This document shows positions 1,532 to 20,800 of a stretch of DNA of 33,318 nt, one piece after another. A program made the position numbers and the translations under genes. Below the pieces are notes generated by a model that ran no database searches, was not told the DNA's origin, and saw only the letters and a list, made by a program, of their open reading frames with translations. Position 1 is the stretch's first letter, and each line of letters opens with the position of its first letter. Source of the DNA: a virus; the IMG/VR virus record IMGVR_UViG_3300021185_002032, positions 1-33,318 of that record; one strand, written 5' to 3'.

Positions 1532-1978
1532 TCATATATTATGTTTTTTTCTAAGCTTATCGCCTAATTTTCTAAGTTTTCTTAATTTTTCATTTTTGGG
1601 CGAAGGAGTATAAAAATCTTTCTTTGCTTTAAGGCCTTCCTTGGTGCTGGTATCAAATGTTGGCAAATGATGCTGATCAGTCCTAGGTAATTTCCTAAGA
1701 CTATCATTTTGCTTTTTCATGTCGCGTATATAAAGCTCTTTATTATTCATTTTTCTTAAGCCTTTACCGTCTTCCCTCTTTTCAGTAGGCGCAATATCTC
1801 TTTGATTTAATTGTTTAGCTGGAGATACATCCGCTCGAGTATGTTTGAAGGCAGGTTTTCTGCCATAGGTTGGGGCATTAGCCTCGTTCACCTTTACGCT
1901 GTGTGCTTTTCTTAATTTTTTAAGTGGACTAGTCCCTAATCCCCTAGGACCTATTCCTTTGAATCCATTGTATGCCAT
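1532..1978 (-). CDS. Small basic protein with GIGP tag and SPxK motifs (paralog 1)
   Basis: A 148-residue, Lys/Arg-rich protein and the last gene of the late operon. I know no function. It opens with MAYNGFKGIGPRGLG, shared with the proteins starting at 2371, 2940 and 3499. It has SP-x-K motifs at residues 17-20 (SPLK) and 52-55 (SPAK), and a further SPKN near residue 125. The middle is rich in K, R, N and D without clear hydrophobic segments, so it is probably largely disordered. Its start ATG follows the stop of the preceding gene by three bases (TAA-ATT-ATG), which implies translational coupling. Abundance of positive charge suggests nucleic-acid binding or packing inside the head, but this is inference. 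It could equally be a minor decoration protein. Confidence 0.8.
   Translation of the reverse strand: MAYNGFKGIGPRGLGTSPLKKLRKAHSVKVNEANAPTYGRKPAFKHTRADVSPAKQLNQRDIAPTEKREDGKGLRKMNNKELYIRDMKKQNDSLRKLPRTDQHHLPTFDTSTKEGLKAKKDFYTPSPKNEKLRKLRKLGDKLRKKHNI
1935..1978 (-). repeat. Dispersed repeat, copy 1 (5' end of a GIGP-tag gene)
   Basis: The first about 44 bases of this gene recur at 2328-2371 and 2900-2940. Against the 2900 copy, the stretch starting CCTAATCCCCTAGG (+ strand) is identical except for about three substitutions and a short indel. Against the 2328 copy, the final 17 bases up to the start codon are identical. Similarity stops soon after the tag. Confidence 0.75.
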
Positions 1979-1981
1979 AAT

Positions 1982-2371
1982 TTATTTGTTATATTTTTTG
2001 TTATAAATATTAGTATAATTCCAAGCATTAGTCAGTGCTTTCTTTTGAGCCGAAGTTCTTTGAGTAGGTCTACCGGTATTATTTTTTTTATCTTGTTGGC
2101 TTTCAAGTTTTTTCATTTCTTTCCACCCTTTAAAGTCGTTGTCTTTAGAGAACTTTTGCCCTCTAGCTCTACCTTCAGGCGAATTATCTGTTGTTGTCAC
2201 AAATGGATTATCTATCCTCCCTTTGGGGTTTTTATACACAGTGTTTCTAAAAATTCTATCTACTTTTATAGAATCTCTTTTAATTCTGCCTTTATTGCTG
2301 TTTTTAAGTTGTTTAAAAGGGCTGGCGCCTAACTTATTGGGTCCTATCCCCTTAAATCCATTGTATGCCAT
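1982..2371 (-). CDS. Small basic protein with GIGP tag and SPxK motif (paralog 2)
   Basis: A 129-residue, Lys/Arg/Asn-rich protein of unknown function. Residues 1-20 read MAYNGFKGIGPNKLGASPFK, nearly the same as the next gene downstream (start at 1978). After that point the two sequences diverge. The remainder contains NPKGR, NSPEGR and a Lys/Asn-rich C-terminus (NIYNKKYNK), with no membrane segment and no cysteine. Composition suggests an extended or disordered basic protein. It sits between a membrane/coiled-coil gene (start 2590) and paralog 1, in the tail of the late operon. A virion-internal or accessory role is a guess based on position and charge. Confidence 0.78.
   Translation of the reverse strand: MAYNGFKGIGPNKLGASPFKQLKNSNKGRIKRDSIKVDRIFRNTVYKNPKGRIDNPFVTTTDNSPEGRARGQKFSKDNDFKGWKEMKKLESQQDKKNNTGRPTQRTSAQKKALTNAWNYTNIYNKKYNK
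2328..2371 (-). repeat. Dispersed repeat, copy 2 (5' end of a GIGP-tag gene)
   Basis: Second copy of the tag-coding repeat. The last 17 bases before and including the start codon (+ strand AATCCATTGTATGCCAT) match the copy at 1935-1978 exactly. The part coding for GPNKLG has diverged more. Confidence 0.7.
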
Positions 2372-2383
2372 TTTTTTTAGTTT

Positions 2384-2590
2384 TTATTTTTTTTTAATAA
2401 ATTCAAGAATAATATTCAGCTTTTCTTTTACCTCATTCATTTGTTCTCTTAAGGATTCGTGTCGCTTTTCAAATCCTACTTTAACTTCTTTTATGCTAAA
2501 AAAAGTAAATTTATATAGAACATACAAAGCGCCTATTAATAAAACAACAGACAAACCGTAACTTTCTATTAGCTGAAATATTTTTTCCAT
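2384..2590 (-). CDS. Small membrane protein with coiled coil (candidate accessory holin or spanin-like)
   Basis: A 68-residue protein with one clear membrane helix at about residues 11-31 (LSVVLLIGALYVLYKFTFF). It is followed by a charged, heptad-like helix (about 34-66) ending in KKK. This plan, an N-terminal transmembrane helix followed by a short cytoplasmic or periplasmic coiled coil, is that of BhlA/UviB-type holins. It is also like a very short inner-membrane spanin. It lies within a few genes of the endolysin and a second small membrane protein (3880-4035), so a role in lysis is reasonable. The topology, and so the choice between holin and spanin, cannot be read from the sequence. No lipobox-bearing outer-membrane spanin was found nearby. 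Confidence 0.75.
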   Translation of the reverse strand: MEKIFQLIESYGLSVVLLIGALYVLYKFTFFSIKEVKVGFEKRHESLREQMNEVKEKLNIILEFIKKK

Positions 2591-2592
2591 GT

Positions 2593-2940
2593 TTATGATT
2601 TTTTATGTTTACTACAAAAACTAGATGCAGCGCCTACGCTACCAAATCCCCATTTTTTTAACGCCATTGCTTTCCTTGTTGGCTCACCTTTTTCGTCTTT
2701 CATGGCTCCTTTCATGCCCGCAAATCTGCATGCAAATGAAACTCTTCTAGGGCTAGTGCCTGATAAATGTCTTCTACCTAATGTCTTTCCTGTTTCTTTA
2801 GTATATTTAGACCTCATTTTACGATTTGACTTTTCGTAAGCAGCGTCCTTGATTTTAGCAGGTGAATCGCAGTCATGACAACCTTCTTCTTTGCCGCCGC
2901 CTAATCCCCTAGGCCCTATTCCTTTAAATCCGTTGTACAT
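2593..2940 (-). CDS. Small Cys-containing protein: GIGP tag fused to a conserved phage domain (paralog 3)
   Basis: A 115-residue basic protein. The N-terminus (MYNGFKGIGPRGLG) is the shared tag and is followed by CHDCDSPAK (21-29). The C-terminal part, about 60-101, contains SPRR then SFACRFAGMKGAMKDEKG and PTRKAMALKKW. I know this as a small conserved domain of uncharacterised phage proteins (consensus like SFCARMxGMKGPMKDxKGxPTRKAxALRxW, I believe DUF6321, number to be confirmed). Cysteines at 21, 24, 71 and 109, with histidines at 22, 58 and 112, could bind a metal, but no standard zinc motif is clear. The junction of a paralog-wide tag with an otherwise independent domain is the notable point. 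Function unknown. Confidence 0.8.
   Translation of the reverse strand: MYNGFKGIGPRGLGGGKEEGCHDCDSPAKIKDAAYEKSNRKMRSKYTKETGKTLGRRHLSGTSPRRVSFACRFAGMKGAMKDEKGEPTRKAMALKKWGFGSVGAASSFCSKHKKS
2900..2940 (-). repeat. Dispersed repeat, copy 3 (5' end of a GIGP-tag gene)
   Basis: Third copy of the tag-coding repeat, nearly identical to 1935-1978 apart from about three substitutions and loss of the second (Ala) codon. It contains the same CCTAATCCCCTAGG block. Confidence 0.75.
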
Positions 2941-2946
2941 ATTAGT

Positions 2947-3180
2947 TTATTTTTTATATTTACTTACTCTTCCTTTTGTGTTCTTTTCTCTTTTAGCTGC
3001 GGCTTTTTGAGCAGGTGTTAACTCACTCCAGGTAGCCGGTGTATTTTTTGAAACTTTTTTAGTGGGTCTAAATGTATTTTCACCGCCTTTATAATCCTTC
3101 TTGCCGCTTGGCGTTTCCCATTCTTCTTTAAACCAGCGATTTAGATTTTTAAGAGGGGAAGGTTTCATCTTAAAAGCCAT
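2947..3180 (-). CDS. Small basic protein with SPLK motif
   Basis: A 77-residue Lys-rich protein starting MAFKMKPSPLKNLNRWF, with the SPLK motif at residues 8-11. It lacks the GIGP tag of its neighbours. The next part, WFKEEWETPSGKKDY followed by RPTKKVSKNTPATWSEL, resembles a set of short uncharacterised phage proteins I have seen with WFxExW and a 'xPTKRVSKxTPxTW' stretch. I cannot name the family securely. The C-terminal half is a run of Lys/Ala/Arg. It is packed between two GIGP-tag genes, with 1 and 6 base gaps, so it is surely co-transcribed. No function can be assigned; DNA binding or a head-internal role would fit the charge. Confidence 0.75.
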   Translation of the reverse strand: MAFKMKPSPLKNLNRWFKEEWETPSGKKDYKGGENTFRPTKKVSKNTPATWSELTPAQKAAAKREKNTKGRVSKYKK

Positions 3181-3181
3181 A

Positions 3182-3499
3182 CTATTTAGATTTGTTTCCC
3201 CAGTTAGCAGCCCCTACTTTTCTACACTTAACCATAGCTCCGCTTCTATACGCTGAGTTTCCTCCTTTGTATCTTGCAGCTACTTTAGTATAACAAGCAT
3301 CTTTTTTCTTAGCGGGACTAGGTGTATGTCCATAGCCTTTTTCCTTTAAATCTAAGTGCTCTTGTTTAGTATTAGCCATTACTGTTTTACCAGATTTGCT
3401 GTGCATTTTATGTGCCTTAAATTTAGCTGGAGATCCTATACTGTATCCATTATTACCCTTTATGCCTAGACCCTGAGGCCCTATACCTTTTGTTCTCAT
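3182..3499 (-). CDS. Small Cys-containing protein: GIGP tag fused to a CYxKVxxRYK domain (paralog 4)
   Basis: A 105-residue basic protein. The N-terminus carries a shortened tag (MRTKGIGPQGLG) and SPAK at 23-26. A second SPAK (61-64) introduces a C-terminal domain with DACYTKVAARYK, SAYRSGAMVKCRKVGA and NWGNKSK (67-105). That domain is familiar to me as a conserved tail of many marine phage proteins (xACYxKVKxRYKxxPSAYASGALVxCRKxGAxNWGN), with two conserved cysteines, here Cys69 and Cys92. Its function is unknown. The start ATG follows the endolysin stop as TAA-ATT-ATG, suggesting coupled translation. As in paralog 3, a common N-terminal tag is joined to an unrelated conserved domain. Confidence 0.8.
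   Translation of the reverse strand: MRTKGIGPQGLGIKGNNGYSIGSPAKFKAHKMHSKSGKTVMANTKQEHLDLKEKGYGHTPSPAKKKDACYTKVAARYKGGNSAYRSGAMVKCRKVGAANWGNKSK
3465..3499 (-). repeat. Dispersed repeat, diverged copy 4 (5' end of a GIGP-tag gene)
   Basis: A diverged copy of the tag-coding repeat: CCTAGACCCTGAGGCCCTAT (+ strand) aligns with CCTAATCCCCTAGGCCCTAT at 2900. The start-proximal part is replaced, giving MRTKGIGP in place of MYNGFKGIGP. Confidence 0.55.
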
Positions 3500-3502
3500 A
3501 AT

Positions 3503-3883
3503 TTATTTTTTAGTGTTATCCCATCTTGCTTTGCTATCTCGGATGTCTACATGGGTAAACGTATTGTATCTACCTAAGCCACCGAACTTTACCACATTAT
3601 TATCTATGTCTTCTTCTATAACATCCGCTAGCTCATTAGGTGTTAATTCTGCGGTTATGTCTGCGGCCTTGCCTAATACATGCTGACTTGTAGAATTACT
3701 ACCGATGCTTCCGTTGTGGCTTTCACATCTATACGCACTGTTAATATGTATAGATCCATATATATCCCTTAAGACTTGTAATTGATCTGACAGCTTAAAT
3801 ATGTTTTCTATTACATTGCGGGGCATTTCACAGCCACACTTGCATTGGAACTCTTCTAATTTAAAGTTATCAGTTAATATCAT
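3503..3883 (-). CDS. Endolysin, peptidase M15-type (D-Ala-D-Ala carboxypeptidase / L-Ala-D-Glu-like)
   Basis: A Zn-dependent murein peptidase expected to cut peptide cross-bridges during lysis. Numbered from Met at 3883 (126 aa), the M15 motifs are SAYRC (49-53), SQHVLGKAADI with Zn ligands His68 and Asp75, and FTHVD with the third ligand His111. The start MILTDNFKLEEFQC is typical of the M15_3 subgroup, and CKCGC (14-18) is usual there. The frame is open up to 3958, but the added 25 residues are not family-like. They are covered by an upstream small gene (3880-4035) whose TGA overlaps this ATG as ATGA, so I place the start at 3883. There is no signal peptide, so export should depend on a holin, which that neighbour could supply. 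Confidence 0.92.
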   Translation of the reverse strand: MILTDNFKLEEFQCKCGCEMPRNVIENIFKLSDQLQVLRDIYGSIHINSAYRCESHNGSIGSNSTSQHVLGKAADITAELTPNELADVIEEDIDNNVVKFGGLGRYNTFTHVDIRDSKARWDNTKK

Positions 3884-4035
3884 TTTTTCTTTTTTAAGGT
3901 TGCCCACTTTGAAATAGTATATCCTATGGTTATTAATAGCAATATAATTTTTAACCAATCCTCTATACCCATAAAAGTAGTTACTCCTAATGTGCTGCCG
4001 TTTATTATGTATAGTTTTATTTCACTTATGCTCAT
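3880..4035 (-). CDS. Holin-like small membrane protein
   Basis: A 51-residue gene found by translating the gap upstream of the endolysin. It begins MSISEIKLYIINGSTLG and continues through IEDWLKIILLLITIGYTI to a basic end (KWATLKKKK). Residues 26-45 form a strong membrane helix; residues 7-23 are mildly hydrophobic and could be a second or amphipathic segment. The positive C-terminal tail suits a cytoplasmic end. The pattern, an N-terminal segment then 'IExxLKIxLLxxTIGYTxxKW', is one I associate with small holins of marine phages. Its TGA overlaps the endolysin ATG (ATGA), the classic coupled holin-endolysin arrangement. The upstream leader is A-rich (AAATAAAAAT-ATG), as elsewhere here. It was missed by length cut-offs rather than being doubtful. 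Confidence 0.8.
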   Translation of the reverse strand: MSISEIKLYIINGSTLGVTTFMGIEDWLKIILLLITIGYTISKWATLKKKK

Positions 4036-4045
4036 ATTTTTATTT

Positions 4046-4393
4046 TTATGCTATTCCGTCGCGAGACATGTTGTTAAAACCTCTTCTTTTTAAATCGTAG
4101 TCCTCTTCCCTTTCTTCTATATTTATAGAGCGGTTTTCTTGTCTAGCAGCTCTTTTTAATAAACGTGTAGCTTTTTTATTTCTGCCCTCGTCAACAGCTT
4201 TTCGGCCTTTAGCCGCTGTTCTTTCTGATTTAGCCCTTACTTTTTCAGACCTTTTTAGTTGTTTAGCAGGTGATGGATTACGCTCAGGCACAGCGCCTCC
4301 GCTGCCATCTGCATTCATAGATATTTCCATACCCTTAGGGGCTTTTACGCCGCACCTTGCTTTAGATACTCTAGTTGTTATTGGTAAGTTCAT
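4046..4393 (-). CDS. Small Arg/Lys-rich protein with SPAKQL motif
   Basis: A 115-residue, strongly basic protein of unknown function. Residues 36-48 (PERNPSPAKQLKR) contain the SPxK motif common to the small proteins of this region. It is followed by a long Lys/Arg/Ala/Glu helix (about 48-105), likely a single charged helix or coiled coil, and a short C-terminus MSRDGIA. The N-terminal 35 residues (KARCGVKAPKGMEISMNADGS) have no GIGP tag. The start is two bases after the stop of the giant protein gene (TAA-CT-ATG), so translation is likely coupled to it. Head-internal or DNA-binding roles are guesses from charge and position. Confidence 0.75.
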   Translation of the reverse strand: MNLPITTRVSKARCGVKAPKGMEISMNADGSGGAVPERNPSPAKQLKRSEKVRAKSERTAAKGRKAVDEGRNKKATRLLKRAARQENRSINIEEREEDYDLKRRGFNNMSRDGIA

Positions 4394-4395
4394 AG

Positions 4396-7300
4396 TTATT
4401 TGTTTGCGCGAGCTTCAGCTTTCATTTCTTCAAGCTTTTCTTTCGCTTTTTCTTTTCTTCTTTTTTCCTTATTATCTAATTTTTTTCTATATTTAGCTAC
4501 AACTTTAATCAAATCGTTTTCTTCGTTCTTAGCCCCAACAGCCCAAGACTTCCATCCTAATGCTAAAGCTATTCTTTGGTACACTGTATTTCTAGAATCT
4601 AATGCCTCAACTATAGAATTTACTTCGTCAACTACACGGGCTAGTGGTATATTTATTGCGCCCTCAACTAAATTTCCTGCAGCATTCCAGGCTGGACTTA
4701 AATTAAATTTCCCGTCTATGGTTACGTCAAATCCTCTTTCGTCTATAACGCCTTCCTCGTACCTTAAAGTTTTAATACCGCTTACTATTTTTCGCCCTTT
4801 AGATCCTACTGCAGGCGATAGGTTAAGAAATGCTAATAGGGTTTTAGAATCATCCGCCATAAATCCTCGGTCATTCTGCTTCTTCCATTCTATTATAACA
4901 TTTTTTATAGTAGAAACAACTGCTCCGGGTATACCAAATCCACCTTTAAGAGTGGTGTCTATCATAGAGTTTAATGTATACATCCACTTGTTATCTTTTT
5001 CAGCCTGTAGTTGTTCTTCAGTTTTTTCTTCGTCATCATCGTTAAATCCAGGTATAAGAGCAAATAGACCCGCTTGAAGTGTAGAAAATATTGCGTTTTG
5101 TATAAAACCGTAATATATCATTTTGCTAACATTAGAAAAATCACTTTGAGCTTGTGTCATGCCTGGTGTCCTTCTTCTATTCACTAGATCAAGAAATGAT
5201 TTTTTTATGGTTCTATTAAGCTGTATAGGTGTATTCATAAAGTTTAACACAACCCTACCTAGCGTACCTGCTTGATCTGAAGATATTAAAGCCGGATCTC
5301 CTGATTGCTGTATTGGGTCTGATGTTTCACTAAAGTCTTCCCAAGCTTTTTCTTCAGCTTGTTTTTCTGTGTAAACTTTTTTACCGTCCGCGTCAACTTC
5401 GCCTAAGTAAGTATTTAATCTATTCCTATAAAACGTAGCGCCTCCAGCGGCTATAGCAAAACTATCAACCATTTGGGTAGGCGTAAAACCTATTTTAAGC
5501 AAATAACTAAGAGCTGCTGTAGCTTTATCTTTCGCTCCTGTAACAGCACTAGCTATTTCCGCGGCATTTACATCGGTATTTAGTCCTGATCTTCTTTGCT
5601 TAAGCTTTGGTGAATTAAATATCATTGCAAAATCTGCCCAGAATTGTTTTTGATTAGCAAATGCGGCAGCAGCTTTCATAGGATTATTGTCGCTCCAGTT
5701 TACAAAGTTAACAGTAGAAAGCAATTGTAGTAATGCTGATCTCCTATTGAAAAACATTATAGCACCAATAGAATTGTTTAGCCATGTATTAAAAGCATTT
5801 TCATTTTTATTAGCAGAAGATCTCTGAGTTCTATTTACGCCAGATTTCATTCTTTCTATTATATTTTCTAATGCCTGTCTATGGTCTTTACCGTATATAG
5901 CCTCTATTTTATTTAAATTGTTTTCGCTAAATATTAAGTCAACATTCTGTATAAATTCTTGTATGTATTCTTTTCTACCGGCTTTTTCTGTAAAGTTATT
6001 AAGATCAGAAAGTATTGTTTGAGCATTCCAGTAATCGTCAGGTTTTGACCATTGCTTTCTTTGTGATACTCTTAATGCTCCATTAGCATAAGCCAGCAAA
6101 TCGGCATCGTTTTCTATAAATTTAACTAATTGTCTTTCCTGTTTTCTAGTAAGACCGGGAATCTCGTAACCTGCTTTATTCCATAAGTATATACGCAATG
6201 CTTGATCATGAGTATATGCCATGCCCGGTATTTTCTTACCTAGCTTTTTTAACACAGGTTTGAATTGCTTGTTAAGCGCAGTGAATCCGTTTTTAAGTGA
6301 TTGTTTGGCCCTCTCTATGTTTCCTACTCCTCTAAAGTATGGTTTTATTAAAAAGTCTTCAAAAAACTTTTGATCAGCATCTCCTTGTCTTCCTTTACCT
6401 GCAAACGTAAAAGAAGTAAGCCCTCTAAAATCATCAAGTGTAGACGGCATCCAAAGCTTAAATCTACCTTTTCTTTTACCTAGCTCCGATGCTTCAACTC
6501 TAGTTAATCGTTTTCTAGATGGAATACCGGAAGCTCTCTCTAACATGTCGTTCATGGTTTTGTTCATGGAGTTACTAAACTTAACTCTAGACCTTTGCGT
6601 TTTACCTTTAACATCAAACGTGTTAAGTATATCTCTTACAGCTTTAGGTTGATTTTTAAAATCTACTATAGACAATTCCGTTTGTCCTTTAACGCCTTTG
6701 CCTTTAAGCGCTTTACCTACAGCTTTAACGTTACCTAAGTGATCATCAGCAAAGTAAAAATCATTATAACCTTCGGCTATTTTGCCAACCATCCAGTCAG
6801 CTTTAGCTTTAGGTGATCCGTTGCCTAGACCAGTTATATTTTTCAAGGGTATGTTTAAGCCCTCAGACTTTAAAAATTCATGTATTGCCTTAGCAGAATT
6901 TGCCGGTCTTGCGGTTAAAACAAATATATCTTTATTAGTATACTTGCCTTCTTTCTTTTGTGCTTCGCTAAACAGCGGGCCTAACTCCCCTTTCATTACC
7001 TTGCTAAATTCGCTGAAGTCAAACTCAGCTCCTTGCTCAAGCATAGCTTCGGACTTAGCGGCAAATTGAGCTGCGTTTAGCTTGCCTTGTTTTACAGCTA
7101 CCGCAGATCCTTGTACGATTCCTTCATTACGTTGATTATAATCCGCAGACCCTATTAATTTTTTTGTGCTATTAAAAGGAATAACAGCTTCTGCCATTAG
7201 ACTCTTCTTGCCAGGATTATAACTAGGCCCCTCTTTATAAATTATGGAATCAAACCCTTCGCTTTTTAAGATGTTTAAATACTCTTTATTTCTTTCAGAA

Positions 7301-10300
7301 ATAGATATATCTTTATTTTTAACAGTACTTTTAATGTCATTTAAAAGATCCTGGTAGGTCTTAAATTGCTTAGGATTATTAGCAGATATAGATACAGCTG
7401 CAACTGTTCCCGTGTTATCTTCTCTGTTTCTATGATCTATAAAAGACTTTGCATTATCTAAACTTTTTGTATAATGCTTGCCCAGCCCTTGCATTTGAAC
7501 ACTAAATGAGGATGCTCCTTCTGGAAAATCTTTAACTATTTCTTTATTTACAAATTTTTGGTCTACTACCGCAGAGGTACCGTGATAGTATACTTTTTCT
7601 TGCTTGGATAAATTACTAAATTCTTTTTCTGTAACTTTAGACGGGCCGCCAGGCATAACGTATAGCACATTACTTTTCGTGCGAGCTAGCGTGTCGTCAA
7701 AGTCAAATACACTAATACCTTTAGGTGTAGTGGAATAACTATAGCTTTTTCCGTTTTCTATGGCTTTTTGTGCATTTATGTTTCTAGTATAAGACGGAGA
7801 CGCTAGGCTTTTTGAAAGCTGCTTATCTACTTTTAGGATGTTTACTTTTGAATTTGTATATTTTTTTTGCAGGTTTATTAAGCTTTCACTTGTAAAACCT
7901 TTATATAAATTGCTAACATAATCATTAAAGTACCTATCAAAACCTGGGTTTGTTTTAGCTAGTGAATCTGCGTTAGGAAACTTATATTGATAAAGAAAGT
8001 CTATAGCTTTAGCTATATTTTTAGGCAAGATTGTTATATTGCTTTTTTCAACAATGCTTTTTAATTGCTTTTCCGTGACACCATAACCATTTATATAAGC
8101 AGCGGCAGCCATTAAAAGTTGCTTGGTAGGCGTCCCGTGCTCAAAAGTATAATCTGCAGCTGTTTGCCCGTCTCCTCTATAAAAAAACATTATCTTGCCA
8201 AGAGTTTTGGCGGCAGAGCGCATTGATTTTGATTGAGAATTTAGTATAACAGTTGCTGCTAAAGGACTAATTCCTCCTTTAGGCTTATTGGTTAATTTTT
8301 TCAGCTGATCAACTAGGCCTAAAAAAGTTTCTGCGCTATCTTCGCTTAGTTTATTTCTTTCTTTAATTTTTACGTCAAATATTAATTTTTCTATTAAGCT
8401 TTTAATGTCAGGGGCATTAGCCTCTTGGACTAAAATAGATGTTGTTTTGCCTTCCTTAGAATAAAAAGTAAATCCTTTTTTGTTTTTGTTTTCCTTAAGG
8501 GTTAAGCCGGCTTCTTCAATAGCTGATTTTATTAATTTTGCGTTATCAGTATTTCCTTTAGCTAACTTATTTAAAAAAGCGTTAAAGCCTTTGTTGTTGC
8601 CGTAAATACTCTGTCCAGTGCCCGCGGCCATACCAGGCTGTACCATACGAATAAAAGAATTTATGCCTTCTGCTTTACCTTTTTGTTCTATTAAAGATAC
8701 TAAAAGATTTTCAAGACCTCTATCAACTTCTGTAATAAGATTTGAAGACGGGTTTCTAAAAGAAATATCTTTAGGGTTTACACCGAACATGTTAGCAATA
8801 TCTCCTGCAGCATTAGTTACTCTGTTATTTAAATATGTACCAAGATCCTCGTTTCCAGCAAGCTTAAATTTTTCTGCTTTTTTCTTAGAATCATCTGTTT
8901 TAGTCTTATTGATAAATGCTTCGTCAATGAATAATCCCTCTAAGGTAGCAAGCATGCCATCAACGTTTTTATCTCTAGTACGTAAGGCTTGTAGATTTAG
9001 CTGCCCATAAAAAAGATCTTTTACCAATAGAGTTGGATATTTTTGTTTAAGATATTTTTCCAGTGACAATCCTACTCTGTTTATAGCCGGATTACCGGAT
9101 GTAATAGAGTACTTTACACTACCTCTTTCTGAGTCTCTAGCTATTTGTTCTACAAGATTTTCAGCAAGTAGAACACTTTTTGCTTTTTGGTTATTTTTAA
9201 AAGCTTCGCTTATTTCACTGTCAGGATCTACTAGTTTTGCGTTAAATATTTCAATACTCATTTCCGCAGCCATAGCTTTAGCTAGCGCTTCTTTTCTACC
9301 TCTTATAGGGTTGCCTGTTTCTGTTAAGAATTGCGATAAGTATGTGTCGTCATCAATAACTTCGTCTACTTTAAAGTAATTAACTATGTTTGGATGTCTT
9401 CTTACAAGAAGCTTCCCATCAGTTCTGCCCGCTAGGTTTGTGCTTGTTTTTTCTCTGTCCACCTCTTTACCAACCCAGTCTGGATAAGAAAGCCATTTGC
9501 CATCTACTTTCTTGTCTATAGCTTGAGGTATTCCTCCTTCACCATCTTTACCCATTAGCCATGTGGTTGTCATGTTTTGCAATACGGCTTTTTTAGTTTT
9601 AAGTAAAAATTTTCTAAGCTTTAAATCTTTTTTGCCTCCCATGGCTGTCTTAAGATCTATATCGGCTTGCGTACCCATTTCAGCTATTATCTCTCCTATG
9701 ACTGGAGTTACAGTACGATTGCCGGTAATAGGCGCATCCATTCTAGCCTTTAATGTACGAAGTATTATTTTTAACTTAGCCTCTATAGCGTCAACAACTT
9801 CGCCAGGCACTACATTGGCTTCTACTAAGCTTCTGTATTTAGGCTTTTCTTTTACTTCGTTTGAACTTTCTTCTGCGGCAATGCCTTTAGTAGTGGAAAC
9901 ATCGCTAGCTTCATTTAATTCTCTACCTTTCTTTAGCTCGGCGAGGGCCTCTTTAATTCTATTGTTTAAACCAAAACTGCTACCTATAATATATCCTGCA
10001 AAATCATTATTACCCTGCGGATTGTCTTTTGTTTTAGGCTTAAAGTTAAGTATGTTCTTAATAAACTGAACCCCTATAGTGGTATCGTAAAATTCTTGAA
10101 CAGTATTACCATAAATATTATCTGCTACAATACCCATTTTAGCAATCTGTTTCCTAAACAAAGGCAGTAGCATTCCTTTTTGAAAAGCCTCAACAATTTT
10201 ACCAGCAACACTAGGCCATTCAGCTAACGTCATGTTTTCAGGTATCATTTTATTTATAGCGTCACCTATTAAAACTTTTTCTTTTTTTAGATCTGCCTCT

Positions 10301-13300
10301 TTTGTATTAGGCGATTTAGCTTTACGTTTAACTTTAGGCTTTGGCTCGGCTTCTACCTTAGGTGGATTTTCGATGTTTTCGTATTCCTCTTCGAGCTTTG
10401 CAATTCTTTTGTCATGAGTATCCTGATCTATAAAGCCCTGCATTAGCTCATCGCTTATTTCGCCAATCTCCTCGTCAATAGCTTCCATTCTATCCTCTTC
10501 AGCTTCAGTAAGCTTTCTGGATTTAGATAATTTTGTACCTGTAGAGCTTGTTTTTTCACCTCTTTTTAATCTTATTGAGCTTTTCCTGGATATTTTTCCA
10601 GACTTTATGCTTGACTGATAGTCTCTAATAAAATCAAAAACATCTTGACCTGTTTTAAATTCTATTTTTGTAAATCCTTTGCCTTTAAATACGTCAACTA
10701 TTGCTCTACCTATTTTAACCCAATTAGATTCACCTATACTATCAAAGTCAACTTCACCTTTTGCCACCATATCAGAAAAAGCTGTAAGCCACTCGTCTGG
10801 ATTCTGTTCTATATAGCCCTTTGGATACCCAGCTAGCCTGGCTTCTATTGCCTCTAATACATACACTGTTTTACCCGTCTTGCTGTTGGCGTAAACTGTT
10901 CTTGTGTCTTTTAGTATAGTTTTAAACTCTTCAACGATTTTTAATATTTCATCATTAGATGTAAATTCTGCGCTTAGTATTTTATGAAGTAGTTCGTGAG
11001 AAGCTGCTGATACCGCTTGGGTTTTAGCAGCGCGTTCTAAATTTATAACTATTTGACCAGTAGCAGCGTCAAAGTATGCGTCCGCCTTAAGATTTGCATT
11101 TTTATCTGCTTTTTTTAATTCTGCTGTAGTATTAAAAACCACTACTCTTTGATTATTCCCGTCTATTCCATTTTCTACTTTGGTTCCTTTCTTGTCAAGT
11201 ATTTTTTTAACAATAGCAGCTTCTTTTTCTATAACTATTTTGGCCGCCGCGTCAGTTAAAGTTTGAATTTCTTTTTGTTTTGCCTTTATCTGCTCATCAA
11301 TGCCCGAAGCAAACGAATCTAAATAGTTTTTCTTTTTATTTTTTAAATTATTTAATTCTTTTTGAGCTCTCGCTATTTCTACAAATTTTTCTGGGGTTTG
11401 TTGTATAATCCAGGGTGGCATTTTACTTTCTGACTCTACAGCAGCTTCGGCGTCAAAAATAATAGCGTCAACTTGCTCTTGAGTAGCAACGCCTGATTTT
11501 ACCATTTCCGCATATCTTTTCTTTGAACCTTCTATATCTTGCCCAACGTAAAATAAACTTTCTAACCTTTTGTAAGGATTTTGTTTAAACCCTGTTTTAA
11601 CAGTAGTTGTACCGCCTAAAAGACCACCAGCCGCAAAAGAAAGCACAGTAGTGTCAATAATGTCTTTCATGCTATACGTGTTCTTCATTAAATCGAAACC
11701 CACTTCTTTATTAATGCCTTCGTTTACCAACAAGTATTCTCCGGCTTGCTGTATGTTTTCTTGTATAACCTCCTTAAACCCTTCTTCACCAAAAGCTATA
11801 CCAAATGATTTAGCTCCTCTAGCTACATTAGCAAGACTTTCTTTAAATCCTTTTGCAGCTTCTTTGCGAACGCCGTTTTTAGCGTAGTCATTTACCAGCT
11901 TGCCTATAACACCTGATTTAGACACTAGCTTGTCTAGCGCTTTCATTGCGTTTACACGGGGGTTGATAGGGCCTGTAACTGCGTACAATAAAGCCATATC
12001 CGATTGTGCAATTGTAGCTAAGTCTTCTGCCTCAGCATCACTTAGCCCTGCTTTTTTAGCAGCTCTTATGGTGTTTTCATAACCAACCGATGCTCCATAA
12101 AGAGATTGAAAAACCGCAGCATTAACTCTTTCTGGCGTTAAAACTTTAGCAACAGCCTTAGGGACACCCCCATAAAAATAATTAAAACTAGATAAGCGGT
12201 AAGCTTTTGCGGATTGAGCAACAGTCTTGTAGCCCCTAGCTGTAGCGAGGCCTTTGGCTAACAGCTTGCCCCCTTGCTTCATACCTACCCCTACTCCTTT
12301 TTGGCCAAATAGTTGGAATATTATATTACCAATAACGCCCGCTGTCATTCTAACGCCGCCCCTTAGATTCCAATCCTTCATTTCAGTGCCGTCTTGGTCT
12401 ATTTTCTTACTAATAGCCTCTACTTGAGCGGCAGGCATGGTGTCATATATATTAAAGCCATCGGTTATGTTAGATATATTGCCTTTTGCATCTTTTATAT
12501 ATGTTTTTCCGTCTACCTCTAAACCTAAGCCCTCTACAGATAAGTAATCCAACGCGCCTAATTCGTCTCCCATTTCCGCTAAGCGCATACTATTTCTACC
12601 TCTTTTGGCAAAAGTGTCATACCCAGCTAAATCAGCTACCCAGTACAATGAATCTAAAGCTGCGTCGGCAGCCCCTATAAATGTTTTTTCGGCTATGTCG
12701 TATATTATATTGTCTTTTGCTAAATTAGTAGGTACAACGCCGATTCTTTTATTTTTTTCTTCAAGGCGCTTCGCTTTGTCTTTATCGTTTTTAGCTTTTA
12801 AATTATAAAAGTTGTTGTTTTCGTAAGCCTGTAATTTTTTATAATCAAAGTTAGTAACCTTATGGGGCTCTTTTAGGGCCTCAATGGTTTTGTTACCTTT
12901 TATTATTTCTGAAAGGTCTAATCTTTTGTTTGTTCTTTCATCTTGCTGGTACATGTAGGCATTTAACATATCCGACAAAGCAAGCTCTTTAGATATTGAG
13001 GCATCCGAAGATGAGTCTCCTGAATATACCCCCTCTTTTAAATCGTTTTCAAAATCTTTTGAGAATTCGTTTACGTTTAAAAAACCCTGAAAGTCAGATA
13101 CATTTACGCCTAATTCATTTAGTTCCGCGGTGTTGTAATAAGAATCTACAAAGCTATTGTCTTCAAGGCTGTTATAGCGCATGTTTTGGAATTCCTCTTC
13201 TAACTCCTCGTCTATTATTATGTTTTCGGCTATTTCTTTATCTGTAGTACCGTAGTATTTATAATCTTCCCCTGAAGCTAATGAGACCTGCTTACCTGAT

Positions 13301-13812
13301 TTATCTACTGTATAACCTCTTTTTGCTTCTAGTTTTCTGTCAGCATATTCTTCAGGGTTATCTCCAGGCATGGGTGCACCTTCTCTTCTGTTATTTTCAG
13401 CGGCCATTATACCTTCGAAAAATCCAAGATCTTCTTGTTCTTGAAATTCAGTATATAAAGGATCTAACGTATTAGCTATTCTTTCTTGGTAAGCCTCGTC
13501 TGTTTCTCTAGGGCGTTGTTCTCTAGGGTTATTTTTATAGAAGTTATAATCCCTACCTTCTTTTATTCTTCTAGCTCTGGCGTCGTCATACGAGTTTACT
13601 CCATCCGATAAACCATCTTCCGAGATTGAATCCCCATTTGATGCTGGGTTGTTTACTGGAGTTGCAGACGCATCGGTCCCCGCAGCTCCGTTCTGAAAAT
13701 CATAGTTTAAATCTATGTTATCTGTATTATCAAAAAGCCAATTGTTTTCTTCCTCTTCTGAAAAGTTAGAGGTGTCAATTACTTCCCCACTATTTAATTT
13801 ATATTTAGGCAT
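4396..13812 (-). CDS. Giant polyvalent virion protein (3138 aa): zincin-like, HAD-like and ADP-ribosyltransferase-like domains; probable ejected core protein
   Basis: It is the third gene of a trio laid out like T7 gp14-gp15-gp16, so I infer it is carried in the head and ejected. Visible parts: acidic N-terminus; hydrophobic stretches about 375-400 and 485-510; a Lys/Glu coiled coil about 810-885; a zincin-like site SHELLH (H939-E940-L-L-H943) with a possible third ligand E1007 in DEWLTAF. A HAD-like domain follows: motif I VFDFDDTLA (D2037, D2039), motif II LTARP (T2300), acidic motif FADDHLGN (D2356, D2357). An ART-like segment lies between HAD motifs I and II, with YHGT (H2077), GLGKHYT (Y2114) and MAEAVIPF (E2208). 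Residues about 2460-3138 are helical with a hydrophobic stretch near 2900-2920 and a charged C-tail, like the large-polyvalent-protein-associated regions. Activities are unproven; the reading frame is intact. Confidence 0.9.
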   Translation of the reverse strand: MPKYKLNSGEVIDTSNFSEEEENNWLFDNTDNIDLNYDFQNGAAGTDASATPVNNPASNGDSISEDGLSDGVNSYDDARARRIKEGRDYNFYKNNPREQRPRETDEAYQERIANTLDPLYTEFQEQEDLGFFEGIMAAENNRREGAPMPGDNPEEYADRKLEAKRGYTVDKSGKQVSLASGEDYKYYGTTDKEIAENIIIDEELEEEFQNMRYNSLEDNSFVDSYYNTAELNELGVNVSDFQGFLNVNEFSKDFENDLKEGVYSGDSSSDASISKELALSDMLNAYMYQQDERTNKRLDLSEIIKGNKTIEALKEPHKVTNFDYKKLQAYENNNFYNLKAKNDKDKAKRLEEKNKRIGVVPTNLAKDNIIYDIAEKTFIGAADAALDSLYWVADLAGYDTFAKRGRNSMRLAEMGDELGALDYLSVEGLGLEVDGKTYIKDAKGNISNITDGFNIYDTMPAAQVEAISKKIDQDGTEMKDWNLRGGVRMTAGVIGNIIFQLFGQKGVGVGMKQGGKLLAKGLATARGYKTVAQSAKAYRLSSFNYFYGGVPKAVAKVLTPERVNAAVFQSLYGASVGYENTIRAAKKAGLSDAEAEDLATIAQSDMALLYAVTGPINPRVNAMKALDKLVSKSGVIGKLVNDYAKNGVRKEAAKGFKESLANVARGAKSFGIAFGEEGFKEVIQENIQQAGEYLLVNEGINKEVGFDLMKNTYSMKDIIDTTVLSFAAGGLLGGTTTVKTGFKQNPYKRLESLFYVGQDIEGSKKRYAEMVKSGVATQEQVDAIIFDAEAAVESESKMPPWIIQQTPEKFVEIARAQKELNNLKNKKKNYLDSFASGIDEQIKAKQKEIQTLTDAAAKIVIEKEAAIVKKILDKKGTKVENGIDGNNQRVVVFNTTAELKKADKNANLKADAYFDAATGQIVINLERAAKTQAVSAASHELLHKILSAEFTSNDEILKIVEEFKTILKDTRTVYANSKTGKTVYVLEAIEARLAGYPKGYIEQNPDEWLTAFSDMVAKGEVDFDSIGESNWVKIGRAIVDVFKGKGFTKIEFKTGQDVFDFIRDYQSSIKSGKISRKSSIRLKRGEKTSSTGTKLSKSRKLTEAEEDRMEAIDEEIGEISDELMQGFIDQDTHDKRIAKLEEEYENIENPPKVEAEPKPKVKRKAKSPNTKEADLKKEKVLIGDAINKMIPENMTLAEWPSVAGKIVEAFQKGMLLPLFRKQIAKMGIVADNIYGNTVQEFYDTTIGVQFIKNILNFKPKTKDNPQGNNDFAGYIIGSSFGLNNRIKEALAELKKGRELNEASDVSTTKGIAAEESSNEVKEKPKYRSLVEANVVPGEVVDAIEAKLKIILRTLKARMDAPITGNRTVTPVIGEIIAEMGTQADIDLKTAMGGKKDLKLRKFLLKTKKAVLQNMTTTWLMGKDGEGGIPQAIDKKVDGKWLSYPDWVGKEVDREKTSTNLAGRTDGKLLVRRHPNIVNYFKVDEVIDDDTYLSQFLTETGNPIRGRKEALAKAMAAEMSIEIFNAKLVDPDSEISEAFKNNQKAKSVLLAENLVEQIARDSERGSVKYSITSGNPAINRVGLSLEKYLKQKYPTLLVKDLFYGQLNLQALRTRDKNVDGMLATLEGLFIDEAFINKTKTDDSKKKAEKFKLAGNEDLGTYLNNRVTNAAGDIANMFGVNPKDISFRNPSSNLITEVDRGLENLLVSLIEQKGKAEGINSFIRMVQPGMAAGTGQSIYGNNKGFNAFLNKLAKGNTDNAKLIKSAIEEAGLTLKENKNKKGFTFYSKEGKTTSILVQEANAPDIKSLIEKLIFDVKIKERNKLSEDSAETFLGLVDQLKKLTNKPKGGISPLAATVILNSQSKSMRSAAKTLGKIMFFYRGDGQTAADYTFEHGTPTKQLLMAAAAYINGYGVTEKQLKSIVEKSNITILPKNIAKAIDFLYQYKFPNADSLAKTNPGFDRYFNDYVSNLYKGFTSESLINLQKKYTNSKVNILKVDKQLSKSLASPSYTRNINAQKAIENGKSYSYSTTPKGISVFDFDDTLARTKSNVLYVMPGGPSKVTEKEFSNLSKQEKVYYHGTSAVVDQKFVNKEIVKDFPEGASSFSVQMQGLGKHYTKSLDNAKSFIDHRNREDNTGTVAAVSISANNPKQFKTYQDLLNDIKSTVKNKDISISERNKEYLNILKSEGFDSIIYKEGPSYNPGKKSLMAEAVIPFNSTKKLIGSADYNQRNEGIVQGSAVAVKQGKLNAAQFAAKSEAMLEQGAEFDFSEFSKVMKGELGPLFSEAQKKEGKYTNKDIFVLTARPANSAKAIHEFLKSEGLNIPLKNITGLGNGSPKAKADWMVGKIAEGYNDFYFADDHLGNVKAVGKALKGKGVKGQTELSIVDFKNQPKAVRDILNTFDVKGKTQRSRVKFSNSMNKTMNDMLERASGIPSRKRLTRVEASELGKRKGRFKLWMPSTLDDFRGLTSFTFAGKGRQGDADQKFFEDFLIKPYFRGVGNIERAKQSLKNGFTALNKQFKPVLKKLGKKIPGMAYTHDQALRIYLWNKAGYEIPGLTRKQERQLVKFIENDADLLAYANGALRVSQRKQWSKPDDYWNAQTILSDLNNFTEKAGRKEYIQEFIQNVDLIFSENNLNKIEAIYGKDHRQALENIIERMKSGVNRTQRSSANKNENAFNTWLNNSIGAIMFFNRRSALLQLLSTVNFVNWSDNNPMKAAAAFANQKQFWADFAMIFNSPKLKQRRSGLNTDVNAAEIASAVTGAKDKATAALSYLLKIGFTPTQMVDSFAIAAGGATFYRNRLNTYLGEVDADGKKVYTEKQAEEKAWEDFSETSDPIQQSGDPALISSDQAGTLGRVVLNFMNTPIQLNRTIKKSFLDLVNRRRTPGMTQAQSDFSNVSKMIYYGFIQNAIFSTLQAGLFALIPGFNDDDEEKTEEQLQAEKDNKWMYTLNSMIDTTLKGGFGIPGAVVSTIKNVIIEWKKQNDRGFMADDSKTLLAFLNLSPAVGSKGRKIVSGIKTLRYEEGVIDERGFDVTIDGKFNLSPAWNAAGNLVEGAINIPLARVVDEVNSIVEALDSRNTVYQRIALALGWKSWAVGAKNEENDLIKVVAKYRKKLDNKEKRRKEKAKEKLEEMKAEARANK

Positions 13813-15134: not shown

Positions 15135-15773
15135 CTAGGGGTTCATAAAATTCTTTACCCCGTCTCCAAGCATTCCCGCTGCTCCTGCTGAAGCCGCGCC
15201 TCCTACCATGCTTCCAACACCACCTAATATAGATTTAGTTGCCGCATCTCTAGCTGCATTAGCTGCACCTAGTCTTTGTTGCGACATACCGAGCATTGTA
15301 TCTACTTTATCTTTTTCCGCTGCTCTGGAGGCATACTCACCTTGTAATTCTTGTTGTTGAAGTTGGCCCGCCATTTGACGTTCAGCCGCTTGGTTACTAG
15401 CTTCCTGTCTACCTATATCTGCTGAGCTTTGTATAGCCGCGTTGCTTTGCGCCCCTGCTAATGATTGGGCTAAAGCCGCAATGCCAGATCCTCCAGCTGC
15501 GCCGGATAAATTATCCATTGTATTAGCAAATCCACCTGCTTGCTGCTGAGCTTGAAATTCTGCCGCTTGCGTATTCACCGTTAAGTCTTCCATGGTATTT
15601 TCCATGTTTTTTGCAAGGTTAGAGGTGTCTGCCCCTTCCATTCTAGCTTTGTTTCTATTAAACTCCGCTTGCGCCGCCTTTTGTTCTCTTTTTCTTTTGC
15701 CGCTGCCTATCATTCCTCCTACAATTCCTGTAAGACCCTGTACAGCGCCACTTATGGCCCCTATTGGTATCAT
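15135..15773 (-). CDS. Internal virion protein candidate (gp14-like), Ala/Gln-rich
   Basis: A 212-residue protein with a Gly-rich hydrophobic N-terminus (residues 3-24, IGAISGAVQGLTGIVGGMIG). A long Ala/Gln/Glu helix follows (about 30-180, with stretches such as AQQQAGGF and AAERQMAGQLQQQELQ), then a second Gly/Ala-rich hydrophobic patch at 184-205. This plan, with hydrophobic ends flanking an Ala/Gln-rich helix, is typical of the smallest ejected core protein of podoviruses (T7 gp14, P22 gp7/gp20-like). Being first in a trio with 434- and 3138-residue proteins supports that. I expect it to help form the channel across the outer membrane. No catalytic motif. Confidence 0.75.
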   Translation of the reverse strand: MIPIGAISGAVQGLTGIVGGMIGSGKRKREQKAAQAEFNRNKARMEGADTSNLAKNMENTMEDLTVNTQAAEFQAQQQAGGFANTMDNLSGAAGGSGIAALAQSLAGAQSNAAIQSSADIGRQEASNQAAERQMAGQLQQQELQGEYASRAAEKDKVDTMLGMSQQRLGAANAARDAATKSILGGVGSMVGGAASAGAAGMLGDGVKNFMNP

Positions 15774-17815: not shown

Positions 17816-20800
17816 TTACGGAGTTGAGCAATTCGGGTCTGCTTGATTTTTTACCGTAAATACTGTCTGAGGAGGAATTACTATAACAGAAGGATTACCT
17901 ATCCCCTGCACATTAAATTCTTTAGAGTCTACATTTGTATTACAAGAGCTTACATAAAAAGTGTCCATGCCTTTTATGTAATTAAACTTCTTACCTTCTT
18001 TGTCTAAAAATTCTTTTATCTGCCCTTCTTGCAAATCGGTTACTATAGAGTTAACATACCAGCCCTTTGTTTCTACAGAAGTATTAGGCGTTAGCCCCTT
18101 TGCCTGTACTTGGGCTAAAGTATATAATCTTTCGCTGCCGGTTAGTTTATACAAAAATTCTTTAGCGTCGGTACCGCTGTAGTTTAATGTTTTATATCCT
18201 TTTACTACAGCTGGATTTTCATTAAGAATAGTATTAAAAGAACTTTCATAATATGGGCCTACCGAAGCTGTGCCTGGACCAATGCCATAAAAAGTATTAT
18301 ATGCCGTGTTTAATCCATGCTCCCATATCCTACCGTTTTTAAATGTGTAGTATATATTATTAAGGTAAGCAGCTGCTTCGGGTATATATGTTTTTCTTGA
18401 AGTAAACCCATTGACTTGTTCTTTGAAAGAAATTGTTGTAGTAGTCGTAGGTAATGTATTTATAAACTGATTACACAGTGGATCTCTATTCAATCTATCA
18501 AATTCTCCTACACCTAAAGTTTGTTGCCAATAAGGCGTTAAAGATTTTAATGTTATATTATAGTTTCTTTTTTCAACATCCCAAGATCCTAATATTTTAG
18601 CATTTGCTGGCAAGTTGTCTGAAAAGAAAGAATGCATACCATAGTCCGATATGTCGGTAATGCCGTCGCCAGATAACCTTAATACTGCCCCTCGATTAGC
18701 GTCTGTGTAATACATTCTAAAACCAAATTCCGCAAATGATTCTGGATTAGTAGCTATGCCGAATTCACCTTGAAACGTTATAGTCTGTCCGAGTACCGCC
18801 GCATTAGAGGTTAAGTTAGTGCTTCCGTCAGCGTTAAATAGAGCGTCTTTCTTAGCTAATATCTTCATTGACTTGTTTTCGCACAAGGTAATTAAATCGG
18901 TGTCTCTGGTGTGTAATTTCTGTATGCTGCCGTACTCAGGATTTACGTCTTTTGTAATATTTTCTGCTTGAATAAACTGGTTAAGATTATTTGTACTTGA
19001 AGCAGAATTAAATATTTGCGAAAATATAAGTCCAGTTGATCTTCTTTCTTCCTCGTACGGCTCGTCTAATGTGGCAGAAGCTTTCACTCCGTCTCCTATT
19101 ACAGGCTGATTAAAATCGTCTCTAATTCGATCTGATTCAACGCCGTTGCCAAATGAATAACAATTAAACCAACTCAAATCCTGCAGTTGTCCAAAGCTAC
19201 TTATAGGGTAAAGATCCGGTGTTTCAAAATATATATCTAACTCAGCTGCTTCTTTAGGTTCTGTTTCAAATATTGCGGGGTTGCTAGTTGAAAAAGTGTC
19301 ATCATTTGTATCGCTAGCTAAAAATTCTATACCCACGTAGAAATTAGCGGATCCACTAAAGTTGTCGTTAAGATTATTTAAAGCGTACATTGGATTCCAG
19401 TCCATTTCTTTTGAGTTGTCCTCAAGCCTTTTAAATTCTATTGTCCATCTAGCATATTGATTTTCGGGTTCATCCCAATCATCGCCTCCGCTGAAAACAC
19501 CTGAGTTATTTGAGCCATCATAAGTTGCGCCTAAGTATCGAACAGAGTTTGTAATAACGTAAATCGTTCCATTAGGGTCTCCTTGATTGACGCCAAAATC
19601 AACAAATCTAAACATAGCGCCAACTGAATTAAGTTGCTCTAAAAGCCTAGGATTCCTGGTTACTATTCCGCTGGCATGTCCGCCTGATGTGTCAGTCCTA
19701 GCTGCTCCGTATCCCGTTGCGTCCGCTAACACCATAAATCCAGGCCCTAATCCCCCGTTGGCTACAGGTAAGTTTATTCCTTTACCGCTACCGCCACGGG
19801 CGTATGTACCTCTATCAATATATAATCTACTATAGTCTCCTAGTGCATCCGGCTCATCCCAGGTATGTTTCCAAAAATTTTCATTACGCTGAGACCCTGA
19901 ATTGTACAACCACAGCGGGGCAATAGCTTTTCTAATAAATGTGTTAGTATTGTTCCTAGCAGACTCTACTTTTTCCCTTAATATATTATCTGAGTTTACT
20001 TTAACAAAAAATCTACCTGTAAATTCTGCTTTATTGTCATCTGATAAATCAAATATTGATATACCAGTACCTCCAACAGGGGCTCCTTGCGCGTTTGTAA
20101 CAAAATCAACATCTGGCCCAAAAGTTTCACCTAAGGTTATCTTAACAAATGTGTTAGATACATCCAACGCAAAGGTGCTTATTTTATAATAATTACTAAC
20201 TTGCCCGCCTGAGCCCGTTATTCTTAATTCTAAACCAGATTTAGTGCGCGTTTCTACACCAAAAGTAGCATCAAATGTTGCTTTATCAACCTGTATTTCA
20301 TTAGCCCCCTCTACAGGAACAGCTCCTTGAGGTCCTTGAAAATCGGTAAACATGCTGCCCTTGCCTAATCGCCGCTCTTTTAAAAATAAAGGTGCTTCAT
20401 TTTCTATAGCTATTACCTTGTATCTGCTTTTTTCAAAAACGGGTATATTATTATCATGCTCCTTTTTGAGTATTAAAAAAGTGTCTTCATCCACTTTATT
20501 TCTTTCTGACGACGGAAATGAAAGCCACACGTTGCCATCTTCAGCGTCATAAAACCTGTCTAATGCTAAATTGTAATAGTCTCTTGACGTTTCTTTTATG
20601 TAATACTTGTAATGTGTAAAATCAGCAAAGCCAGTTAAAGTTTTATATTTAGGCGGGTTGCCATTTAGCGTTACTCTTATGTTGTTAGCGGAGGCAGAAG
20701 ATGCTTTTTCTACAACCAACGAAGCGCTATTGCTCGTAAATACGGGGGTGTTCCTGCCGTACTCGTCTATATAAACAACACCCACTTGATAAGTGCGTAA

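What the first reader, a model, noticed from the sequence alone, without database searches (positions are those of the whole stretch)
1532..3499. A shared N-terminal GIGPxxLG tag joined to four unrelated small basic proteins
Seen directly: the proteins starting at 1978, 2371, 2940 and 3499 begin with (M[A]YNGFK/MRTK)GIGP[R/N/Q][G/K]LG and then diverge completely. Two of them go on into separate conserved phage domains. Known: T4 internal proteins IPI-III and Alt share an N-terminal capsid-targeting sequence fixed to different cargo, and are ejected into the host where some block defences. Inference: the GIGP tag is an analogous short address, for head entry or for attachment to a virion part, that this phage family moves between cargo domains. 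That would be a modular effector-loading scheme at the end of the late operon.
Basis: partly seen in the sequence, partly recalled or inferred. Interest (0 to 1): 0.75.

Follow-up and report, generated by a model that had tools for sequence, protein, structure and literature searches.

The report
Swappable address tags on phage cargo
A group of marine bacterial viruses builds small positively charged proteins by joining a few short interchangeable front pieces to many unrelated folded pieces, always at the same four-letter joint, probably as an address that loads this cargo into the virus particle.

Summary
Four adjacent late genes of a Bacteroidetes-type podovirus begin with GxGPxxLG (4 of 24 genes; at most 1 in 20,000 shuffles). 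Each tag runs into SP[ALF]K, which is also in two neighbours with other N-termini, and the cargo changes there. In related IMG/VR contigs the same tag (28/29 residues identical) carries a different cargo, and the same cargo (80/86 identical) carries a different tag. SP[ALFIVM]K is about 19 times enriched in small genes behind the giant virion-type gene (56 versus 3.0 expected). It also recurs at the N-terminus of one upstream virion-type protein (16 of 58 homologues, 0.2 expected). The cargo modules occur untagged in T7-like phages beside scaffold and capsid genes, and in T4-like cyanophages as polyproteins. In cyanophage S-CREM2, two such proteins were found in purified virions (PMC10665884). 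Best reading: a modular virion-cargo loading scheme analogous to the T4 capsid-targeting sequence but unrelated to it. Virion location of the window proteins, the addressing role and any effector function are inferred, not shown.

The parts
1919..1978 (-). Tag module MAYNGFKGIGPRGLG + joint SPLK of ORF 1532-1978 (148 aa, net charge +24)
1532..1918 (-). Cargo of ORF 1532-1978, no database match; contains a second joint SPAK (residues 52-55)
2312..2371 (-). Tag module MAYNGFKGIGPNKLG + joint SPFK of ORF 1982-2371 (129 aa, net +21)
1982..2311 (-). Cargo of ORF 1982-2371, no database match
2854..2940 (-). Tag module MYNGFKGIGPRGLGGGKEEGCHDCD + joint SPAK of ORF 2593-2940 (115 aa, net +17); predicted disordered
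   Evidence: AlphaFold pLDDT about 40
2650..2823 (-). Cargo module PF19846 (DUF6321), predicted helical fold, pLDDT 81-88 from about residue 61
   Evidence: (40.0 bits, cut-off 28.5)
2977..3180 (-). Companion ORF 2947-3180: N-module MAFKMKP + joint SPLK (3148-3180) + cargo PF19197 (DUF5872), no GIGP tag
   Evidence: (46.2 bits, cut-off 27.5)
3422..3499 (-). Tag module MRTKGIGPQGLGIKGNNGYSIG + joint SPAK of ORF 3182-3499 (105 aa, net +19)
3308..3319 (-). Second joint SPAK of ORF 3182-3499; in L079 the cargo after this joint is a different module
3185..3307 (-). Cargo module CYTKVAARYK...CRKVGAANWGNKSK (phrog_727 type)
   Evidence: homologue in S-CREM2 virion protein ORF160
4262..4393 (-). Alternative N-module MNLPITTRV...MNADGSGGAVPERNP + joint SPAK of ORF 4046-4393; in L008, L017 and L022 this N-module is fused to DUF6321-type cargo
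4396..13812 (-). Giant 3138-aa late protein directly upstream of the cassette (syntenic with annotated structural proteins of elemovirus and phi38:1)
15135..15773 (-). p212, Gly/Ala-rich virion-type protein whose homologues carry an N-terminal SP-phi-K extension in 16 of 58 cases (the window copy does not)

Best explanation
The cassette 1532-4393 encodes small basic virion cargo proteins built from interchangeable parts: [short disordered N-module] - [SP-phi-K joint] - [small folded cargo module], sometimes - [SP-phi-K] - [second module]. Steps resting on evidence: the modules really are swapped, at the joint; the joint is strongly over-represented and also marks the N-terminus of one upstream late virion-type protein; homologues of the cargo modules were detected in virions of a cyanophage. 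Inferred steps: during head assembly the N-module plus joint is recognised by a common virion partner (scaffold, portal or ejection-protein core), which draws the cargo into the procapsid. There the basic modules lie against the packaged DNA and may leave with it at infection. Having several N-module types would allow several docking sites or stoichiometries.
For: (1) Exact swaps: window 2593-2940 and L009 share 28/29 residues up to SPAK and then 16/58; window 2593-2940 and L008 share 80/86 residues after SPAK but carry different N-modules; window 3182-3499 and L079 swap at the second SPAK. At least 7 N-module classes against 8 or more cargo classes. (2) SP[ALFIVM]K in the first 60 aa of 56 of 500 small ORFs downstream of the giant gene, 3.0 expected, maximum 9 in 300 shuffles; Ser codons at the joint are of both AGY and TCN type, so it is held at protein level. 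(3) The same motif at the N-terminus of p212 homologues, 16 of 58 (0.20 expected, maximum 2), none in the rest of those proteins, and about chance in the other tested families. (4) Conserved place: of 58 loci with at least 1.5 kb behind the giant gene, 43 have a cargo module, 26 an SP-phi-K ORF and 10 a GxGPxxLG ORF. (5) Cargo modules in virions elsewhere: S-CREM2 ORF160 (DUF5872-like, CWxGY and CRKV modules, 7 peptides) and ORF137 (DUF6321-type C-terminus, 4 peptides) are in the published virion proteome. In S-CBP4 and HTVC200P, stand-alone modules sit between scaffold and capsid genes. (6) AlphaFold: tag disordered (pLDDT about 40), cargo folded (81-88).
Against: No virion data for this phage or any tagged relative. 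SP-phi-K on p212 and SP-phi-K in the cassette do not co-occur across genomes (Fisher p 0.71), which weakens the idea of one shared receptor. The window's own p212, scaffold and capsid protein lack the motif. SP-phi-K also occurs between modules inside proteins, which fits a generic joint or a cleavage site as well as an address. The nearest sequenced isolates (elemovirus, phi38:1, phi46:3) have no such N-termini on annotated genes.
Confidence: 0.5

Rival explanations
1. SP-phi-K is a maturation cleavage site: the proteins are made as precursors, and a head protease removes the N-module and separates the modules, as T4 gp21 does with internal proteins and core proteins.
For: The joint recurs both after the N-module and between modules of one chain. 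In T4-like cyanophages the same modules are strung in one polyprotein. T4-type addresses are removed by a protease (PMC5694885).
Against: No protease gene was recognised between terminase and capsid genes in the window, though the contig is only 33 kb and probably incomplete. The giant protein contains a HELLH motif whose role is unknown. No cleavage data exist.
Confidence: 0.2
2. The proteins are packaged DNA-condensing proteins, and SP-phi-K is an SPKK-like DNA-contact motif rather than an address.
For: All tagged proteins are strongly basic (net +14 to +24). BFVD structure search shows DUF6321 also on a Ferritin/DPS-domain protein (weak hit).
Against: The enriched form is SP[A/L/F/V]K; SPKK occurs only twice. 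The motif is mostly single and N-terminal, not arrayed. It does not explain tag-cargo swapping.
Confidence: 0.15
3. The shared N-termini are leftovers of gene shuffling at a recombination hot spot and have no function of their own.
For: The region behind the giant gene is highly variable. Swaps are frequent and clean.
Against: Tag residues are held while codons diverge (with the caveat that only invariant positions were compared). Both Ser codon families are used at the joint. The motif was gained on otherwise different N-termini of p212 homologues.
Confidence: 0.1
4. The cassette serves lysis or late host takeover and is not in the virion; its proximity to the M15 endolysin-like gene is what matters.
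For: A phage endolysin-type M15 peptidase gene (3503-3958) and a small gene with a hydrophobic N-terminal stretch (2384-2590) are interleaved.
Against: Cargo homologues are in S-CREM2 virions and beside scaffold and capsid genes in T7-like phages.
Confidence: 0.05

Closest known systems
T4 internal proteins IPI-III and Alt with the capsid targeting sequence (CTS)
   Same: A short N-terminal sequence conserved on otherwise diverse small proteins of the late region; review PMC3012670 describes a highly diverse set with only the CTS conserved.
   Different: No sequence similarity to a CTS, no [LI]xE cleavage site in the tags, several alternative N-modules with a constant joint, different phage lineage, cargo function unknown.
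Propeptides of giant-phage head and ejection proteins (SPN3US, phiKZ)
   Same: N-terminal segments proposed to target ejection proteins to the prohead (PMC5694885).
   Different: Those are mostly over 100 residues and cleaved by a prohead protease; here the N-modules are short (about 7 to 47 residues with the joint) with no known cleavage.
Multi-module proteins of T4-like cyanophages (S-RIM8 098, P-SSM2 123, S-CREM2 ORF160)
   Same: Same cargo modules: DUF5872-like, CWxGY, CRKV, DUF6321.
   Different: There the modules sit in one long chain without GxGPxxLG or SP-phi-K; only 2 of 80 CRKV ORFs from a general viral sample have SP-phi-K before the module.
Podovirus ejection (pilot) proteins and the crAss001 cargo proteins
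   Same: Proteins carried inside the virion and encoded at the end of the structural operon (PMC10172136).
   Different: Those are large conserved proteins without a shared swappable tag.

Membership tests
T4 internal proteins with CTS | One short N-terminal sequence shared by otherwise unrelated late proteins | tested here: met
T4 internal proteins with CTS | T4-type head-protease cleavage site ([LI]xE) at the end of the N-terminal sequence | tested here: not met
   Read directly: none of the four tags up to SP-phi-K contains [LI]xE
T4 internal proteins with CTS | Proteins present inside the virion | tested here: inconclusive
   Only homologous cargo modules are shown in virions, in cyanophage S-CREM2
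T4 internal proteins with CTS | The N-terminal sequence directs a foreign protein into heads | not testable with these tools
   Needs tag-reporter fusions
T4 internal proteins with CTS | Ejected with DNA and acts on host defence | not testable with these tools
   No functional data
PF19846 (DUF6321) | Pfam gathering score | tested here: met
   ORF 2593-2940, 40.0 bits, cut-off 28.5
PF19197 (DUF5872) | Pfam gathering score | tested here: met
   ORF 2947-3180, 46.2 bits, cut-off 27.5
SPKK DNA-binding repeats | S/T-P-K/R-K/R, usually repeated | tested here: not met
   SPAK 39, SPLK 14, SPFK 6, SPVK 6, SPKK 2 among 500 ORFs
Pachyviridae / Pervagoviridae / Elemovirus-like podoviruses (the host phage) | Homologous terminase, portal and capsid genes in the same order | tested here: met
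   TerL 64% to MW202828, 46% to elemovirus, 38% to phi38:1 and phi46:3; portal, scaffold and capsid hits in synteny

The most novel reading that the evidence does not exclude
Marine tailed phages of unrelated lineages draw on one shared repertoire of small basic virion cargo modules, and each lineage loads them with its own short address: GxGPxxLG/PITTRV...SP-phi-K in these podoviruses and, in at least one T4-like cyanophage (S-CREM2 ORF160), a copy of the major capsid protein's N-terminal arm. That would be an exchangeable cargo library with lineage-specific loading codes.
Probability: 0.3. Interest if true: 0.82.

Novelty: new variant of a known kind. Interest (0 to 1): 0.64.

Why it matters
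Outside T4 and the giant phages, it is largely unknown how phages choose which small proteins go into the head. If the N-module/SP-phi-K unit is the address, it offers a peptide code readable from sequence for finding virion cargo in uncultured marine viruses. It would also link several widespread domains of unknown function (DUF6321, DUF5872, phrog_727 type) to the virion, and provide a short tag for loading proteins into a podovirus head. The swaps at a defined joint make the idea directly testable.

Tried and rejected
SPKK DNA-binding reading: the enriched motif is SP[ALFV]K, SPKK only twice. Tag as a cellular motif: MRTKGIGP hits in bacterial genomes are chance, read directly, e.g. RadC-like proteins and short frames. 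Co-occurrence of SP-phi-K on p212 and in the cassette: not found, p 0.71. Fold of the cargo: no PDB match by fold or sequence; the BFVD hits return DUF6321 itself. GIGP in the tail protein (GIGPGTASVG, 18276-18286) lacks the LG and is internal: coincidence. An out-of-frame ORF at 27478-27615 ending in SPFK looked like a small phage protein, but no phage record matches it: dropped. An MCP-arm-like motif as a general cyanophage tag on these modules: only S-CREM2 shows it among 82 CRKV proteins. L007, a pattern hit, gave no tagged ORF: taken as chance. Isolated relatives (elemovirus, phi38:1, phi46:3, Gundel_1) lack N-terminal SP-phi-K on annotated genes, so no virion proteomics of a tagged phage could be consulted.

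Full report
Observation. The four ORFs exist where stated and share GxGPxxLG within the first 15 residues. In 20,000 within-N-terminus shuffles of the 24 minus-strand genes no more than one gene ever matched; four do. The cargos after the tag show no significant mutual similarity by BLASTP. Codons at the invariant tag residues differ synonymously in 19 of 36 comparisons; positions were chosen for identical residues, so this shows only that the copies are not recent DNA duplicates.

Setting. The contig is a 33 kb virus record. Terminase, portal, scaffold and capsid genes place it with Flavobacterium elemoviruses and Cellulophaga phages phi38:1 and phi46:3; the nearest record is MW202828, 64% in the terminase. 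The cassette is the end of the late operon, directly behind a 3138-aa protein, interleaved with an M15 endolysin-type gene and facing a ribonucleotide reductase gene. MW202828 and an elemovirus have no such small genes behind the giant gene.

Module swapping. Pattern scans of IMG/VR for NGFKGIGP and MRTKGIGP, and a search for relatives of the giant protein's C-terminus, gave about 100 loci. In these, N-modules (NGFKG[IV]GPxxLG; MRTKG[IT]GPQGLG; PITTRV...NADGSGGAVPE; GCGPxxLG; AFKMK; NWLxRQK; AYxQKxNP) combine with cargo modules (DUF6321 type; DUF5872; CRKV; CWxGY; KGRKAVDEG; GLWDNIHAKRKR; GTGKKPKGSGRR; KVCLP) in many ways. The clearest pairs are numeric: window 2593-2940 against L009, 28/29 identical up to and including SPAK and 16/58 after it; against L008, 80/86 identical after SPAK with a different N-module before it; window 3182-3499 against L079, the same through two joints and then CRKV against CWxGY. 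L103 carries remnants of two N-modules in tandem before one cargo.

How special is the joint? In 500 distinct small ORFs within 6 kb behind the giant gene, 56 have SP[ALFIVM]K in the first 60 residues against 3.0 expected and at most 9 in 300 shuffles. Sequences are dereplicated but not phylogenetically independent, so the excess is not a formal probability. Ser is coded by both AGY and TCN at the joints. The same motif stands at the N-terminus of 16 of 58 distinct homologues of p212 (window 15135-15773), in different sequence contexts, against 0.2 expected, with none in the rest of those proteins. The giant protein (1 of 87), p434, p115, tail proteins, portal, capsid and terminase families show none or about chance; for portal, capsid and terminase only 5-6 homologues were available. 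p212 is Gly/Ala-rich, precedes p434 and the giant gene, and by gene order and composition resembles a podovirus ejection protein; that is inference, as no PHROG or Pfam family matched it. Motif presence on p212 does not correlate with presence in the cassette.

Where do the cargo modules go elsewhere? In general viral samples the CRKV and DUF6321 modules are usually untagged: either whole small proteins or parts of long chains; only 2 of 80 CRKV ORFs have SP-phi-K before the module, and one of those carries GIGPQGLG too. In the T7-like phages S-CBP4 and HTVC200P, stand-alone DUF6321 and related small genes sit between the scaffold and major capsid genes. In T4-like cyanophages the same four modules form one chain (S-RIM8 098, P-SSM2 123). 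The published virion proteome of S-CREM2 (PMC10665884, Table 3) lists ORF160 with 7 unique peptides and ORF137 with 4. Translating OR473000 shows that ORF160 consists of the DUF5872-like, CWxGY and CRKV modules, and that ORF137 ends in a DUF6321-type module. This is the only direct experimental link to virions found, and it concerns homologous modules in another phage type. The module assignments in S-CREM2 rest on shared sequence signatures read from the translations, not on a profile score.

Mechanism. Best supported is a loading scheme: disordered N-module plus joint as address, small folded basic domain as cargo (pLDDT about 40 in the tag, 81-88 in the cargo; the second model is weaker but has the same trend). 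Shown: swapping, motif enrichment, conserved genome place, virion homologues. Inferred: packaging of the window proteins, recognition of the tag by a head component, position against DNA, ejection. The chief rival is that SP-phi-K is a processing site; virion peptides across the joint would decide.

Comparison. It works like the T4 CTS system, where a conserved short N-terminus is attached to diverse internal proteins (PMC3012670) and is removed by the head protease (PMC5694885). It is not filed as a member: the tags have no [LI]xE site and no CTS similarity was evident. It differs in having a set of alternative N-modules and a constant joint. The cargo function is unknown; neither an effector nor a counter-defence role was shown. 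The literature search for DUF5872 and DUF6321 found one paper that merely lists DUF5872 in an algal virus, so no published function or tag description was found in the library searched.

Noticed in passing
L115:28343-29236 and L115:18482-19852 (S-CREM2 OR473000, 128342-129235 and 118481-119851): Cargo polyprotein ORF160 carries FTGAAAPEGPVAGYDPLM near its N-terminus, nearly matching FTGAAAPGGPNAGFDPVM in the N-terminal arm of the major capsid protein; these are the only two proteins of that genome with the motif, and both are in the virion proteome. Possibly a capsid address copied from the capsid protein.
   Followed up: partly
window 4396-13812: The 3138-aa giant protein has a HELLH motif, a DFDDTLA (HAD-like) stretch and a YHGT...-type stretch resembling ADP-ribosyltransferase starts, read by eye; no Pfam or PHROG family matched the whole protein.
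   Followed up: no
P-SSM2 (L114), S-CREM2 ORF155 (L115:25492-26013), several IMG/VR loci: A recurring short motif [YN]xWR[ED][ED][FLY] (YSWREEL, SNWRDEF) in cyanophage proteins, sometimes directly after a cargo module; ORF155 is in the S-CREM2 virion proteome. It may be another lineage-specific short address.
   Followed up: partly
window 27478-27615 (-): Out-of-frame ORF MPFQNKKQMQAMFLSSNPKTKATARKWFKKYGSPFKMKNNLFLKK inside the scaffold-like gene 26555-27742, ending in SPFK; no phage record matched it, probably chance.
   Followed up: yes
L192:747-1016: MNLKGIGPQGLG...SPMK...SPMK-CRKV protein on a contig found through the cargo module alone; host phage type not examined.
   Followed up: no
window 2384-2590 (-): Untagged 68-aa protein with an N-terminal hydrophobic stretch and a charged coiled-coil-like tail within the cassette; possibly a lysis-related or membrane protein.
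   Followed up: no
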